Origin: Exiguobacterium sp. Leaf196 | GTDB lineage: Bacteria > Bacillota > Bacilli > Exiguobacteriales > Exiguobacteriaceae | NCBI RefSeq assembly: GCF_001423965.1 | Contig: NZ_LMPV01000011.1 | Coordinates: 598 to 64,597 of the forward strand | Direction: 5' to 3' | DNA length: 64,000 nt | Part shown: positions 18,122-51,165 of the stretch, in pieces | Numbering within the stretch: the stretch's first letter is position 1 | Layout of the letters: each line of letters starts with the position of its first letter | Position numbers and translations under genes: made by a program | Notes under the pieces: model-generated | What the model was told of the DNA's origin: nothing | The model's database searches: none | The model's input: only the letters and a program-made list of their open reading frames with translations

Positions 18122-18946
18122 TTAGAACGGATTATAAAATCGATTGCCATCATGGAAAGTGACGACAAACGAGAAGATCGTCAAAAGTACTACACAACTG
18201 ATGGCGACATAATCAATTCGTGTCATCGTCTGTTGGTTGTACCACGTCCGCTTTCGTCCCGCACCAAATCCACGGAGATCCATCGCATTGCTGACGGTTT
18301 CAATTCGTTCGAGACTCGTAAACAGCAACGGAAGTAAAATCTGGATGCTATTACGCGCCCGTTGCCAAAGCGAACCATGCGAGACGGCAATTCCCCGCGC
18401 TTCCTGAGCGTTCGCAATCGTCCGAAAGTCCGCTTGTACGTCTGGAATATAACGGAGCGCTAATGAGACAGCGAAGGCGATTTTATACGGTACACCAATC
18501 CGGTTCAACGAGGACGCGAATTCTGTCGGATGGGTCGTGACGAGAAACAACACAGCAATCGGAACGATCACACTGTATTTTAAGATGAGATTAAACAAAT
18601 AAAATAATTGTTCTGATGTTATCGTAAAGCGACCAACGCCTTCAAATAAAACGTGACGCGAACCGTAGATTTCAACGCCCTGCTCTGGTTCGAATAGATA
18701 AACGGCGAGTGCATTAATCAGAACAAATATTGCTGTAAAGATCAAAACGAATCGGACTTCCCGAAACTGAATACGTGACAATCGGAATAACACGATGCTG
18801 ACTAAACCAAGAACAAGTAAGACACGTGTATCATAGGTAAACATCGTTGCTGTCGTAAATAACAAGAATCCGATCAGTTTCGTCGTTCCCGTCAATCGAT
18901 GAATCGGTGACGCTTTTTCAATATAGCCAAGCATTTCTACAGCCAT
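18122..18946 (-). CDS. ecfT: ECF transporter transmembrane component EcfT
   Basis: This 274-residue EcfT-like (CbiQ family) protein has about five to six membrane helices, mostly in residues 20-125 and 240-265. The two coupling motifs that dock on the ATPases are clear: ANAQEARGI and AMDLRGFG (Ala-Arg-Gly type), in a cytosolic helical region. It couples ATP hydrolysis to S-component toppling during micronutrient uptake. The start overlaps the end of the double ATPase gene by 10 bases. It is the last gene of the T-box-led operon SAM hydrolase - S component - ATPase - EcfT. A dedicated (group I) ECF system is implied, since S, A and T are together. Confidence 0.9.
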   Translation of the reverse strand: MAVEMLGYIEKASPIHRLTGTTKLIGFLLFTTATMFTYDTRVLLVLGLVSIVLFRLSRIQFREVRFVLIFTAIFVLINALAVYLFEPEQGVEIYGSRHVLFEGVGRFTITSEQLFYLFNLILKYSVIVPIAVLFLVTTHPTEFASSLNRIGVPYKIAFAVSLALRYIPDVQADFRTIANAQEARGIAVSHGSLWQRARNSIQILLPLLFTSLERIETVSNAMDLRGFGAGRKRTWYNQQTMTRIDYVAISCVVLLTIFSFVVTFHDGNRFYNPF

Positions 18947-20640
18947 TGTTCCCGCTCCTTTCGCTCCGCCGTAATCACGGACTCGATGAATCGTTCCGCA
19001 TCGATGTCGAGATGTTTCGCTATCGTAAAGAGCGATGTTTGCTTTAAATGGGCATGATGCAGCAACTGTTCTTGATTTAGCAGTCCAAATGACGTTCCGG
19101 CGTAACGGATGCGTCCAGCTTGCACCAGGCAGACTTGATCGCTGTACTCTAAGACGAGATGCATATCATGCGTGATGATGAGTAACGTCATCCCCTCTTG
19201 TTTCAATCCTTCTAAAAAGCCCATCATATCCGAATAATGCCGGTAATCTTGACCAGCTGTCGGTTCATCGAGAATCAAGATATCCGGTCGTCGAACGAGA
19301 ATCGAAGCAATCGTCACCCGTTTCTTCTGACCAAAACTTAGTGCTTGGATCGGCCAATTGCGAAACGGATATAATCCGCAGCGACGTAACGTCTGCTCGA
19401 GACGCTCGTTTTCTTCCGCTTCACTCAATCCGAGTGTCTGCATCCCGTAGCGAATTTCCTCCTGCACGAGGTGCTTCGAAATCATATGATTCGGATTTTG
19501 CAGGACGAATCCGATTGACCCTGCCCGCTCGGCGATCGGTTGGTGCGTAATGTCGGTCCCGTTAAGTAGGATTCGGCCACTCGTTGACCGTTGATAACCA
19601 CTCAACACTTTCGCAAGCGTTGATTTCCCTGCACCATTCTGACCGACGATCGTTGTCAGTGTTCCTTTTTGAAAAGTCGCCGTCACATCTTCAAGCACTG
19701 GCGTTCCTTGATGATAATGAAACGCCAACTGCTCAAGTTCAAGCAATGAATCAGAGATTGCAGCCTCTTTTTGAGGAGCTTCTTCTAAACGTTCTAACAC
19801 GTCTTTCTGGTTGAACTGCTCTAAAAAAGGATCGATGCGGCTCGGCTGATCTACAGACTCCACGGTCATGCCAGCCCAGCGTGCGGCACTGACATAGAGG
19901 GGTTCACGCAATATTGCTTGTTGCAGTTTTCCGTTACTTAAGATGACGTCAGGATGATGATCGGCGATAATTTCTCCGTCGACCATGACGATGATGCGAT
20001 CAAATGGAATGACCAGTACATCCTCGATTCGGTGTTCAACGACGATCAGTGTTCGGTTCGTATCGCGTTGCAGTCGATCCATTAACATCATCGCTTCTTG
20101 ACCCGCTACCGGATCGAGATTTGCGAGTGGTTCATCAAACAATAAGATATCCGCATCTTCGACGAGAACTCCAGCCAATGCCGCCCGTTGTCGCTGACCT
20201 CCTGATAAATCATTTAATCGCGCTTGCAAAAGCGTCTCGACGTCCGTCATCCGTGCGACGCGTTCGACGATCTCGTGCATTTCCGGTCGCCCTGTCTGTT
20301 TGTTCTCGAGCGCAAAGGCAATGTCTTCGCCAACCGATAAACCAACGAACTGCGCATCTGGATCCTGTAACACCGTGCCAATATGCAGCGAACGATCAAA
20401 TAACGATAACGTCCGGGCATCCTGCCCTTTGATCAGAACCTGTCCTTTCCACGTTCCCGGGTACGAGAATGGAATCAACCCATTGATGCACTGAGCAAGC
20501 GTACTTTTTCCTGAACCCGAAGGTCCAACAATTAAGATGCGTTCGCCTGCTTGAATCGTTAACTGAATCTGCCGGAGTGTCGGTTCCGACTGACTCCGAT
20601 ATGTAAATGAAAAATCCTGAAATTCAATCACGTTTGTCAT
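18937..20640 (-). CDS. ECF transporter double ATPase (EcfA-EcfA' fusion)
   Basis: This 567-residue protein has two ABC ATPase domains in tandem. Domain 1 (about 1-235) has Walker A GPSGSGKST (39-47), signature LSGGQRQR and Walker B ILLFDEPLANLD. Domain 2 (about 300-560) has Walker A GQNGAGKST, a variant signature LSFGQKKR, and Walker B ILILDEPTAGQD. Fused pairs like this (YkoD type) drive ECF importers. The start is ATG 20640, with GGGGGGAGAAAGAC upstream; the frame runs 22 codons further without a ribosome site. It overlaps ecfT by 10 bases and follows the S-component gene by 70 bases with no terminator. The change of Gly to Phe in the second signature is a common degenerate site. Confidence 0.92.
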   Translation of the reverse strand: MTNVIEFQDFSFTYRSQSEPTLRQIQLTIQAGERILIVGPSGSGKSTLAQCINGLIPFSYPGTWKGQVLIKGQDARTLSLFDRSLHIGTVLQDPDAQFVGLSVGEDIAFALENKQTGRPEMHEIVERVARMTDVETLLQARLNDLSGGQRQRAALAGVLVEDADILLFDEPLANLDPVAGQEAMMLMDRLQRDTNRTLIVVEHRIEDVLVIPFDRIIVMVDGEIIADHHPDVILSNGKLQQAILREPLYVSAARWAGMTVESVDQPSRIDPFLEQFNQKDVLERLEEAPQKEAAISDSLLELEQLAFHYHQGTPVLEDVTATFQKGTLTTIVGQNGAGKSTLAKVLSGYQRSTSGRILLNGTDITHQPIAERAGSIGFVLQNPNHMISKHLVQEEIRYGMQTLGLSEAEENERLEQTLRRCGLYPFRNWPIQALSFGQKKRVTIASILVRRPDILILDEPTAGQDYRHYSDMMGFLEGLKQEGMTLLIITHDMHLVLEYSDQVCLVQAGRIRYAGTSFGLLNQEQLLHHAHLKQTSLFTIAKHLDIDAERFIESVITAERKEREQWL

Positions 20641-20710
20641 GTCTTTCTCCCCCCAAGCTAAATGAGCTATGTCCCTGCCGTTTCTTCGCACAGGATCATA
20701 GCTCATTCGG

Positions 20711-21262
20711 TCAAACTTCGCGTTTCAAGCTGCCTGCTTTACTTCTTGTTTTGGCATACGTGACGAGTAATAACGTTCCGATGACACCGACTGTCAAGAT
20801 GTTTGATGTCGCAGCGACCGCACCTTGAACGAAGACTTTATTCGCCGGCTCCGTGTAAATTAAAATATCGAGTACAGGTGCGATGATGATCCAACCAATC
20901 GCTTGCACGATGGCTTGTGTGGCGTTGAATAAAACGATTTTACGAGTCGTCAATCCGCCTTCTTCTAAACGAATTCGGTTAGCAATCAATCCGATACCAA
21001 ACCCGACGAACCCGGAGACGATGACCCAACTCCACCACGGGGAACCGTATAAAATCGCATCTTTTAAGCCATGACCGATCAGACCGATCAAGCCGGCTGT
21101 AACCGGTCCGAACAAGACCGCCATGAATGCGAGAAATGCATAGGCTGTCTCGATTGACGTGTTCGGTACGCCTGTCGGAATCGCAGCGAATCGACTTAAA
21201 ATGATGAATACAGCTGCTCCGATCCCAGTTGCGACGATTTGTTTTGTCGTAAATCCTTTCAT
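20711..21262 (-). CDS. ECF transporter S component, UPF0397 type
   Basis: This 183-residue protein has six predicted helices and matches UPF0397/ECF S-component proteins: [31 protein letters not shown] at the N-terminus, [20 protein letters not shown] and GSPWWSWVI following. S components bind the substrate in the membrane and give specificity. Comparative genomics has proposed methionine-related substrates for some ECF systems under methionine control; here the T-box and SAM hydrolase point the same way, but the substrate is unproven. The start overlaps the SAM-hydrolase stop by 4 bases. A GGAGGAGAT ribosome site lies before ATG. Confidence 0.85.
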
Positions 21263-22116
21263 GTTCGATCTCCTCCTTTAATGTGTTGTACGCTAACACT
21301 CCAATCATTTCCGATTCCAACTTCAAATGCATGTGCAAACGAACCTTGATTCAAGGCAAGAGCAATCTGATCCAGCGAATTGATGTAGACGACTCCTGAA
21401 CCGACCGGCACATCGGCGAACGAATGACCGAAGAGCAGTGTTTGTTCGTAGACGATCCGGTCTCGGTACGAAACCCTTACCTTGACGTGGTTGCCGATAT
21501 CAAGACCCACCTGGCGGACGAGCGTGACCGGGATGTTCGTCCAGACGTTTCCGAAGCGAACATCGAGAATCTCGACGATACCGGTAACACCGTTGTCCGA
21601 CGATGAAGCAAATGTCCGGTCGAGTAAGACGAGTTCTTCAGTAGGTAAAAGCGGTCCCACCTCTTCGAACGTGATGACGTGACTCGATAATCGCGCACCC
21701 GTGAAGGCAAAGATATCTCGTCCGTGAAACGTATACGATTCACCCATCCGAGGCAGACGATGCCGTCGATCATCGAGTTGTCTCACTTCCGCAATGTATC
21801 CGGCTTGCCAAAGATGCGTCAACGTCCCATTATCCGGTGTAATGATGTATTGATTGGTCCGTGTTCGCGCGACGACACTCTTTCGCCTCGACCCGACACC
21901 CGGATCGACGACAGAAACGAACACCGTTTGCTCCGTCCAGTACGGCACCGTCTGTAGTAACCGATAGGACGCTTCCCAAATGTGGAATGGCGGAATGTCA
22001 TGCGTTAAATCAAAAATCCGAATCTCCGGATTGATGCTATGGGCAACCCCATACATCGCACTGACCGCCCCGTCACTCACACCAAAGTCTGATTGCAATA
22101 CCAATGCTTCTGCCAT
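21259..22116 (-). CDS. SAM hydrolase (S-adenosyl-L-methionine hydroxide adenosyltransferase, DUF62)
   Basis: This 285-residue DUF62 enzyme belongs to the fluorinase/chlorinase fold. The hydrolase triad is intact: Asp71 and Arg78 in DPGVGSRR (spacing of seven) and His131 in FHGRDIF. This set marks family members that split SAM with water into adenosine and methionine rather than halogenases. N-terminal [10 protein letters not shown] and TPDNGTL also fit. The start at 22116 has AGGAGGATGACG upstream; the frame runs into the T-box terminator region further up, which is not coding. It is the first gene after the T-box and shares 4 bases with the S-component gene. Confidence 0.92.
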
Positions 22117-22149
22117 CTCGTCATCCTCCTCCTGCGGGAACGTCTCCAC

Positions 22150-22435
22150 AAAAAAAGACACCACGCCCTTATTTCTCAGGACGTGATGTCTGATCACGTG
22201 GTACCACCTTCGTTCATGACTCAACTCACGCTCAGCCACCTCTAGGAGTACGAGACTCCATGGAATGCTAACGGTATCCTTCCTACCGGTCGGTTCTACT
22301 GATGAACACGGTTCACGTTCTTCCGACTGCTCCGGGACCATCTTCAAGTATCGAAATCGTCTCATTTCCAGCAACAGAGACTCTCTATCGATTTCCAATC
22401 ACTTTACTCTTCCCATCTACACATGCAGATTCAGT
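22150..22435 (-). promoter_or_regulatory. T-box riboswitch, probable methionine (ATG) specifier
   Basis: Minus-strand leader of about 290 bases. The T-box sequence AAGGTGGTACCACG is at 22197-22210. The terminator (22157-22168 with 22179-22190, then seven T) follows. Stem I carries AGAGAG and GGAAAT apical elements closed by GAAATCG/CGATTTC. Below, AAGT/ACTT and GGGA/TCCC helices flank an internal loop with AGAGTA opposite GAAGATGG. The trinucleotide after GAAG is ATG, so uncharged tRNA-Met is the likely ligand (GAT, Asp, is the alternative frame). Binding would allow readthrough into the SAM hydrolase-ECF operon. Confidence 0.9.
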
Positions 22436-30346: not shown

Positions 30347-30486
30347 GAAAAAACGTACAGCCGCTACCCGGGGGCAGCCACTGTACGCCAAAAAAGAGAG
30401 CAGTAACTCACCACCCGTAGTCGGATCGTTACGGCGATCCGGTAGAGACTCGTGGGCCAATTCCCACTATTATACGAGCGTTGCTA
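30347..30486 (-). promoter_or_regulatory. Guanine-class purine riboswitch with terminator
   Basis: The minus-strand aptamer (about 30409-30486) has TATAAT, GTCTCTACC, CCGTAAC and GACTACG in the order of the purine riboswitch. The C in GACTACG marks the guanine class (adenine aptamers have U). P1 pairs CGCTCG with CGGGTG. An expression-platform terminator follows (30354-30368 with 30373-30387, then T run), so guanine should switch xpt-pbuX off. Confidence 0.95.
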
Positions 30487-30538
30487 TACGTTTACGTTTC
30501 GTGATTTTCGTGATGTTTACCATTGTACGGGGTTTAGC

Positions 30539-50895: not shown

Positions 50896-51165
50896 AACAA
50901 AAAGCGCCCTCATCTTCCAGATGGAAGATGAGAACGCAACATAATAAAATGAATGCGCCTCATTCTACCGTCGTGAAAGATAGCTCTCCACAAGTAAGTG
51001 ATACCCGACTTGTGACAGTATTAGACCTATTCGATCTAATCCCAATCGATCATCTTCAAAGCGATGATTGATTTCGGCAATTCTTCCTTTCAGGTCACTT
51101 CATTTGTCGCTTGACGACATCCGTAACCGTACTCTTAAGAACTGCAACCTCCATCCCACTGGTTG
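50896..51165 (-). promoter_or_regulatory. Lysine riboswitch (L box) with terminator
   Basis: Minus-strand leader. GATGGAGGTTGCAG at the 5' side, AAGAGTACGG, GACCTGAAAGG, TTGCCGAAATC, CTGTCAC and GGAGAGCTATC follow in the order of the L box, as in B. subtilis lysC. The terminator is a 15-bp stem (50904-50918 with 50923-50937) with a T run. Lysine should switch the permease off. Confidence 0.95.

What the first reader, a model, noticed from the sequence alone, without database searches (positions are those of the whole stretch)
18122..22435. T-box-controlled operon joining a SAM hydrolase to a complete ECF importer
The sequence shows a full T-box leader, a DUF62 protein with the intact Asp71/Arg78/His131 hydrolase triad, a UPF0397-type S component, a fused double ECF ATPase and EcfT, all coupled by overlaps or short gaps. 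DUF62 enzymes split SAM into methionine and adenosine. Inference: when methionine runs short, the cell imports a SAM- or methionine-related compound and hydrolyses SAM to recover methionine. Linking SAM hydrolysis to an importer under tRNA control would be a little-described salvage route.
Basis: partly seen in the sequence, partly recalled or inferred. Interest (0 to 1): 0.82.

Follow-up and report, generated by a model that had tools for sequence, protein, structure and literature searches.

The report
Methionine-starvation SAM salvage and import operon
A bacterial operon, apparently switched on when methionine-charged tRNA runs short, joins an enzyme of a family that splits S-adenosylmethionine back into methionine with a dedicated membrane importer; the same gene set recurs in many related bacteria, which suggests a testable role for an enzyme family whose purpose is disputed.

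Summary
On the minus strand lie a T-box leader (22428-22174), a DUF62 SAM hydrolase with D71/R78/H131, an ECF S component (PF07155, UPF0397 type), a fused double ECF ATPase and EcfT, coupled by overlaps or short gaps. The specifier reads AUG (Met), in a register checked on other T-boxes of this genome; of 21 T-boxes found there, 20 could be read and only this one reads AUG.

The set is not a local oddity. In 398 Bacilli genomes DUF62 occurs in 50 and this S-component subfamily in 55; 39 have both, and in 39 of 39 the genes are adjacent. T-box cores upstream of DUF62 were found in 48 further distinct loci, and all 48 read AUG. Some streptococcus-type copies lie behind metN-metI or carry a MET-box. 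The methionine link is strong.

The importer's substrate is not shown. Database names say 'riboflavin'; a 'methionine precursor' ECF family is in print. Import of SAM, including the (R,S) epimer that a studied DUF62 prefers, is the simplest fit but unproven. Met-T-box DUF62 genes without an importer, and metK in 50 of 50 carriers, count against obligatory SAM import. Verdict: a real, conserved, little-described methionine-salvage operon; new variant of a known kind.

The parts
22174..22428 (-). T-box leader with AUG (Met) specifier in stem I (GAA-G-AUG-G) and GGUGGUACC T-box bulge
   Evidence: RF00230 81.2 bits, E 6.5e-18; register checked against other T-boxes of the genome
22150..22190 (-). 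terminator-like hairpin and T run, expected to alternate with the antiterminator
   Evidence: direct reading (inverted repeat followed by a T run)
21259..22116 (-). DUF62 / SAM hydroxide adenosyltransferase (SAM hydrolase family), 285 aa, D71/R78/H131 present
   Evidence: PF01887 2.4e-49, PF20257 1.9e-20; NF058624 (R)-SAM hydrolase 144.5 bits, under its 350-bit cut-off; alignments
20711..21262 (-). ECF S component, PF07155/UPF0397 subfamily, 183 aa; overlaps DUF62 by 4 bases
   Evidence: NF010182 248 bits, PF07155 6.8e-48; AF2 model pLDDT 90.9 with S-component fold
20650..20710 (-). stable predicted hairpin between the S-component and ATPase genes
   Evidence: sequence kept in close relatives, predicted -25.6 kcal/mol
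18937..20640 (-). fused double ECF ATPase (two ABC domains with DUF3744 between)
   Evidence: TIGR04520 and TIGR04521 over their cut-offs, PF12558 DUF3744
18122..18946 (-). EcfT transmembrane component; overlaps the ATPase gene by 10 bases
   Evidence: PF02361 CbiQ 5.2e-32

Best explanation
This is a methionine-starvation salvage operon. Shown from sequence: a T-box reading AUG precedes DUF62, the S component, the double ATPase and EcfT, all on one strand with overlaps or short gaps. Inferred from the established T-box mechanism: uncharged tRNA-Met pairs with the AUG specifier and the T-box bulge, stabilises the antiterminator, and the operon is read when methionine for translation runs out, apart from SAM, which the genome senses by 11 S-box riboswitches. 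Inferred from family biochemistry: DUF62 splits SAM, with preference for the (R,S) epimer, into methionine and adenosine. Most likely, but unproven: the dedicated ECF importer brings in a substrate that feeds the same end, with SAM of either epimer the first candidate and methionine or a methionine precursor the second. Methionine role about 0.9; SAM as the imported substrate about 0.4.
For: T-box with AUG specifier, register validated. T-box cores upstream of DUF62 in 23 of 49 unnamed and 27 of 80 named loci; all 50 read AUG; two pairs are the same locus in both sets, so 48 distinct loci. In 398 Bacilli genomes: DUF62 50, S-component subfamily 55, both 39, Fisher p 3.8e-31, which treats related species as independent. 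Adjacent, DUF62 first, in 39 of 39 (38 loci, plus the window). Full order DUF62-S-ATPase-EcfT in 28 of 48 unnamed loci with a usable DUF62 and 38 of 80 named, the latter the best 80 of 566, including Clostridia, Erysipelotrichia and a Treponema MAG. Second regulator: the only three MET-box matches with 2 or fewer mismatches in 121,812 bases of 14 streptococcus-type loci lie 65-103 bases upstream of DUF62 (two of the three loci are 98% alike; consensus printed in PMC2627894). Six such loci have DUF62-S behind a metN-metI pair and another ECF S component (domains tested in L092 and L089). Own genome: 11 S-boxes, the genes behind nine of them best matching metK, three metN, mtnK, mtnW, msrA, an S-methylmethionine permease and an LLM monooxygenase. 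S-component residues D68, W76, W79, D132, E138 and Q146 are invariant in 45 DUF62-linked sequences.
Against: Substrate not shown. NCBIfam and Pfam call the S component a riboflavin transporter. 11 of 50 DUF62 genomes lack the S subfamily and 16 of 55 S genomes lack DUF62; 17 loci (16 distinct) have a Met T-box and DUF62 with no S component or double ATPase found nearby. metK in 50 of 50, so imported SAM is not the only source. No Rfam leader at gathering score in 10 loci from Clostridia, Erysipelotrichia and Treponema; 11 of 14 streptococcus-type loci lack a MET-box at this stringency. DUF62 is far under the (R)-SAM hydrolase equivalog cut-offs (144.5 of 350 and 100.9 of 470 bits). D132 and E138 are not invariant once divergent S components are added. 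Tekel et al. doubt that (R,S)-SAM hydrolysis is the physiological role (PMC12120602).
Confidence: 0.6

Rival explanations
1. Two independent arms under one switch: the ECF imports methionine or a methionine precursor, while DUF62 recycles internal SAM, mainly the inactive (R,S) epimer, to methionine. No SAM is imported.
For: Met-T-box DUF62 genes without S component or double ATPase nearby (17 loci, 16 distinct); S components with an ATPase gene behind them in genomes without DUF62 (for example L213, L217, L220; absence); cassette/orphan state changes about 15 times on a FastTree DUF62 tree, at least 8 forced by starred branches, with long-branch warnings; streptococcus-type copies sit behind a methionine importer; 'Methionine precursor' ECF family in print (PMC3654945).
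Against: DUF62 directly before S in 39 of 39 genomes that have both, with a 4-base overlap in this window, suggests that the enzyme acts on the imported compound.
Confidence: 0.33
2. The importer is a riboflavin (or other vitamin) ECF as the database names say, and DUF62 is a neighbour co-regulated for another reason.
For: NF010182 and PF07155 names; weak profile match to the riboflavin uptake protein 3p5n, E 0.0052; fold neighbours include RibU but equally FolT, ThiT, BioY, PanT.
Against: A Met T-box would be an odd switch for riboflavin; methionine signals recur in streptococcus-type loci. The RibV proposal, which I recall as an origin of the name, rests on one FMN riboswitch in Mesoplasma (PMC4418817).
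Confidence: 0.08
3. The importer carries another adenosyl or methylthio compound (methylthioadenosine, methylthioribose, decarboxylated SAM) and DUF62 acts on it or on SAM.
For: A 'Methylthioadenosine (MTA)' transporter family is listed beside the methionine-precursor one (PMC3654945); the genome has mtnK and mtnW for MTA salvage.
Against: mtnK and mtnW here lie behind S-boxes, not a T-box; MTA is a thioether, not the sulfonium that DUF62 is known to act on (established chemistry).
Confidence: 0.15

Closest known systems
Methionine-precursor ECF family (TCDB 'Met-P'; MtsTUV as recalled from Rodionov et al. 2009, not held here)
   Same: ECF importer assigned to methionine supply
   Different: Whether MtsT is this PF07155 subfamily is recalled, not checked; the one passage seen is a table line without DUF62 (PMC3654945)
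DUF62 / (R)-SAM hydrolase (Salinispora DUF62, P. horikoshii PH0463)
   Same: Both Pfam domains; clear matches to solved members 2zbu, 2wr8 and 1wu8
   Different: Here behind a Met T-box and joined to an importer; under the NCBIfam equivalog cut-offs
Methionine T-box regulons of Firmicutes (Wels 2008)
   Same: T-boxes with methionine specificity before methionine-related genes (PMC2494555, passages)
   Different: My term search of the paper found no 'S-adenosyl'; it lists Listeria lmo2587 as 'Met related cytosolic hypothetical', which I could not identify
SalL chlorinase / fluorinase
   Same: Same family of folds, SAM as substrate
   Different: The chlorinase lacks the aligned Asp, Arg and His; the window protein has all three

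Membership tests
T-box leader (RF00230) | covariance-model match, stem I specifier, T-box bulge, terminator | tested here: met
   81.2 bits, E 6.5e-18, full model 1-219, though under the 93-bit gathering score, as are 4 of 21 T-boxes of this genome; terminator read
T-box leader (RF00230) | specificity for tRNA-Met | tested here: met
   by sequence only: AUG in register, controls trpS, glyQ, asnA, argS, AUG in 48 of 48 further distinct loci; binding not tested
DUF62 SAM hydrolase | PF01887 + PF20257 and Asp-Arg-His (role of the residues recalled) | tested here: met
DUF62 SAM hydrolase | NCBIfam (R)-SAM hydrolase equivalog cut-off | tested here: not met
   144.5 of 350 bits and 100.9 of 470 bits; so family member, not that equivalog
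[quoted passage not shown]
   needs assay
ECF transporter, dedicated (group I type) | S, A, A', T encoded together | tested here: met
   fold of S component
Riboflavin ECF (NF010182/PF07155 name) | riboflavin as substrate | not testable with these tools
   name only; a score over the cut-off says family, not substrate
MtsTUV methionine-precursor ECF | S component orthologous to MtsT | not tested
   the look-up for the source paper found nothing held; no MtsT sequence identified

The most novel reading that the evidence does not exclude
The cassette is a dedicated bacterial SAM importer coupled to an intracellular SAM hydrolase: under methionine starvation the cell takes up environmental SAM, including the (R,S) epimer that most SAM enzymes do not use, and turns it into methionine and adenosine. 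This would be the physiological role of the ECF-linked DUF62 enzymes.
Probability: 0.37. Interest if true: 0.82.

Novelty: new variant of a known kind. Interest (0 to 1): 0.58.

Why it matters
Why cells should hydrolyse costly SAM is an open question; [quoted passage not shown] Recurrent Met T-boxes plus conserved linkage to an importer point to methionine supply and make it testable in a cultivable bacterium. If SAM is the cargo, this would be a dedicated bacterial SAM importer with a salvage function, and the 'riboflavin transporter' label of this subfamily would be wrong.

Tried and rejected
Rfam default scan gave no T-box; the permissive scan did. Idea that cassette carriers might lack metK and need SAM: rejected, 50 of 50 have it. 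Idea that versions outside Bacilli have a known riboswitch: none at gathering score in the 10 loci scanned (other such loci not scanned). Idea that a further gene belongs to the operon: in 128 loci listed, no gene recurs behind EcfT beyond a few close relatives, with gaps up to 150 bases allowed. Substrate from solved relatives: no hit for the single S protein up to E 1, a weak RibU hit for the profile, fold search near FolT, RibU, BioY, ThiT and PanT alike. A second PF07155 protein of the genome is a distant paralogue that keeps D68 and W76 but not W79 or D132 in that alignment; a third match was not looked at. Identity of Listeria lmo2587 could not be settled.

Paper searches. In their listings I saw no paper on DUF62 with an ECF importer or on SAM import by an ECF; most listed papers were not opened, and searches listed 25 of 78 and 25 of 85. 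Only open-licence papers are held; look-ups for Vitreschak 2008, Rodionov 2009 and Rodionov 2004 found nothing held.

Limits of the counts: regular expressions and phmmer were used, so T-boxes with unusual cores are missed. L101 (a truncated DUF62) was dropped from the order counts. The S-component set (159 bits or more, 55 genomes) was read by hand from the list, where the next value is 142.9. Specifiers were read by eye, anchored on the 3' GAG; L062, unread there, was read. The named and unnamed sets share two loci (L078 = L102, L082 = L179), counted twice in the per-set figures. 'Streptococcus-type' (group f26 g29) is inferred from Rfam Streptococcus sRNA matches in L089 and L090.
Full report
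What is there. On the minus strand, read 5' to 3', lie a T-box leader (22428-22174) with a terminator-like hairpin, a DUF62 gene (22116-21259), an ECF S component (21262-20711), a fused double ECF ATPase (20640-18937) and EcfT (18946-18122). DUF62 and S overlap by 4 bases, the ATPase and EcfT by 10; between S and the ATPase are 70 bases that can form a stable hairpin. The start codons of DUF62 and the ATPase are my choice; the ORF finder lists longer frames. The T-box scores 81.2 bits, under Rfam's curated 93 but with E 6.5e-18; four of the 21 T-boxes found in this genome are under 93 bits.

Specificity. In the Rfam alignment the specifier reads AUG. The same columns read UGG before trpS, GGC before glyQ, AAC before asnA and UGG before trpE, and by direct reading CGC before argS; the gene names were checked. 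Of 21 T-boxes, 20 could be read and only this one reads AUG; L021, a poor match, could not be read. So methionine is the sensed amino acid, by sequence. The genome also has 11 S-box riboswitches. The genes behind nine of them best match metK, three metN, mtnK, mtnW, msrA, an S-methylmethionine permease and an LLM monooxygenase; the metN, permease and monooxygenase matches are under their curated cut-offs, and the first genes behind the other two had no match at the threshold used. This operon thus appears to answer to methionine-tRNA while the classical methionine and SAM genes answer to SAM.

Conservation. PF01887 is present in 50 of 398 Bacilli genomes and 10 of 19 of the genus, and in 23 of 398 genomes sampled across the phylum. 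The S-component subfamily (PF07155 at 159 bits or more; the next value is 142.9) is in 55 of the same 398. Thirty-nine genomes have both (Fisher p 3.8e-31; species are related, so this overstates independence), and in all 39 the S gene directly follows DUF62 (38 loci, plus the window). The complete order is found in 28 of 48 unnamed loci with a usable DUF62 and in 38 of 80 named loci, the best 80 of 566; two loci are in both sets. Named carriers of the full set include Exiguobacterium, Neobacillus and other Bacillus-type genera, Sporolactobacillus nakayamae, Clostridium cuniculi, Oscillospiraceae and Erysipelotrichia MAGs and a Treponema MAG. No other gene recurs in the operon beyond close relatives.

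Regulation elsewhere. A T-box core precedes DUF62 in 23 of 49 unnamed and 27 of 80 named loci, 48 distinct loci, and every one reads AUG. Seventeen of these (16 distinct) are DUF62 genes without an S component or double ATPase found nearby. In 40 sources scanned with Rfam at gathering score, 9 T-boxes were reported; the others are under that score, as the window's own is. In 14 streptococcus-type loci (121,812 bases) the MET-box palindrome with 2 or fewer mismatches occurs three times, every time 65-103 bases before DUF62; two of the three loci are 98% alike, and the other 11 loci have none at this stringency. The MET-box consensus is printed in PMC2627894 (passages seen), which also says that MET boxes and regulation by MtaR/MetR do not fully coincide. 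Six of these loci have DUF62-S behind a metN-metI pair and an MptD-family S component (tested in L092 and L089, with metN and metI under their cut-offs).

The enzyme. D71, R78 and H131 are present; 120 of 129 aligned DUF62 proteins have all three, 8 have Tyr or Phe for His and one is incomplete there (two loci are counted twice). That these residues are the hydrolase triad is recalled. In PMC12120602 (parts 1 and 2 of 3 read) a Salinispora DUF62 prefers (R,S)-SAM, is inhibited by salt, and the authors suggest that at least some family members have another function.

The importer. The S-component model has pLDDT 90.9 and the fold of FolT, RibU, BioY, ThiT and PanT. Invariant residues in 45 DUF62-linked sequences include D68, W76, W79, W124, D132, E138 and Q146; with divergent S components added, D68, W76, W79 and Q146 remain invariant. 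From the helix pattern several lie at the outer face where S components bind substrate (inference). A charged, tryptophan-rich site would suit a cationic, adenine-bearing ligand but does not prove one. The riboflavin name comes from the family models; the RibV proposal that I recall as an origin rests on one gene in Mesoplasma (PMC4418817, passages).

Reading. Two models remain. In the coupled model the ECF imports SAM and DUF62 turns it into methionine and adenosine. In the two-arm model the ECF imports methionine or a precursor and DUF62 mines internal SAM. The fixed pairing favours the first. DUF62 genes with Met T-boxes but no importer, S components in genomes without DUF62, repeated switching between cassette and orphan on the tree and metK in 50 of 50 carriers favour the second, or at least show that the two parts can work apart. 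I put SAM import at about 0.4.

Known or new. ECF 'Methionine precursor' and 'Methylthioadenosine' transporter families are listed in PMC3654945 (one passage). Met T-box regulons are known, with a Listeria gene listed as 'Met related cytosolic hypothetical' (PMC2494555, passages). In the listings of ten paper searches I saw nothing that joins DUF62 to an ECF importer or to a Met T-box; most listed papers were not opened, and key subscription papers and RegPrecise were not available. Hence: new variant of a known kind.

Checking. Changes: L062 now read (AUG), argS control added, duplicates between the two sets stated, the orphan count raised from 11 to 17 loci, wording on metN-metI made exact. 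None of this required a change of odds.

Noticed in passing
window 20650-20710 (-); L064, L067, L069, L072, L073, L081; also L074, L078, L100: A stable hairpin lies between the S-component and ATPase genes; it is nearly identical in close relatives, and in L074, L078 and L100 a hairpin of different sequence lies there, in L100 with a T run like a terminator. It may lower ATPase/EcfT output relative to S and DUF62.
   Followed up: partly
L053 (two DUF62 genes in tandem): Both DUF62 proteins begin with signal-peptide-like stretches, one with a lipoprotein-type cysteine (read by eye), so this family may also work outside the membrane.
   Followed up: no
L114, L122, L130, L134, L149, L178, L181: Cassettes with a divergent S component and one or two extra DUF62 paralogues, as if DUF62 had diversified with the importer.
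   Followed up: partly
L082 (= L179), L093, L119, L132, L145, L152, L154: DUF62 proteins with Tyr or Phe in place of the His of the D-R-H set, some under a Met T-box; Tyr is what the aligned chlorinase has.
   Followed up: no
window 50973-51161 (-) and 30398-30497 (-): A lysine riboswitch (120.8 bits) and a purine riboswitch (74 bits).
   Followed up: no
L092:6943-7539 (-), L089:6950-7537 (-); similar genes in L090, L091, L094, L096: An MptD-family putative ECF S component sits between metI and DUF62 (tested in L092 and L089), a second S component of unknown cargo in a methionine operon.
   Followed up: partly
PDB 7ccg chain A: A DUF62-family match bears the molecule name 'DNA-directed RNA polymerase subunit delta', probably a naming error.
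   Followed up: no
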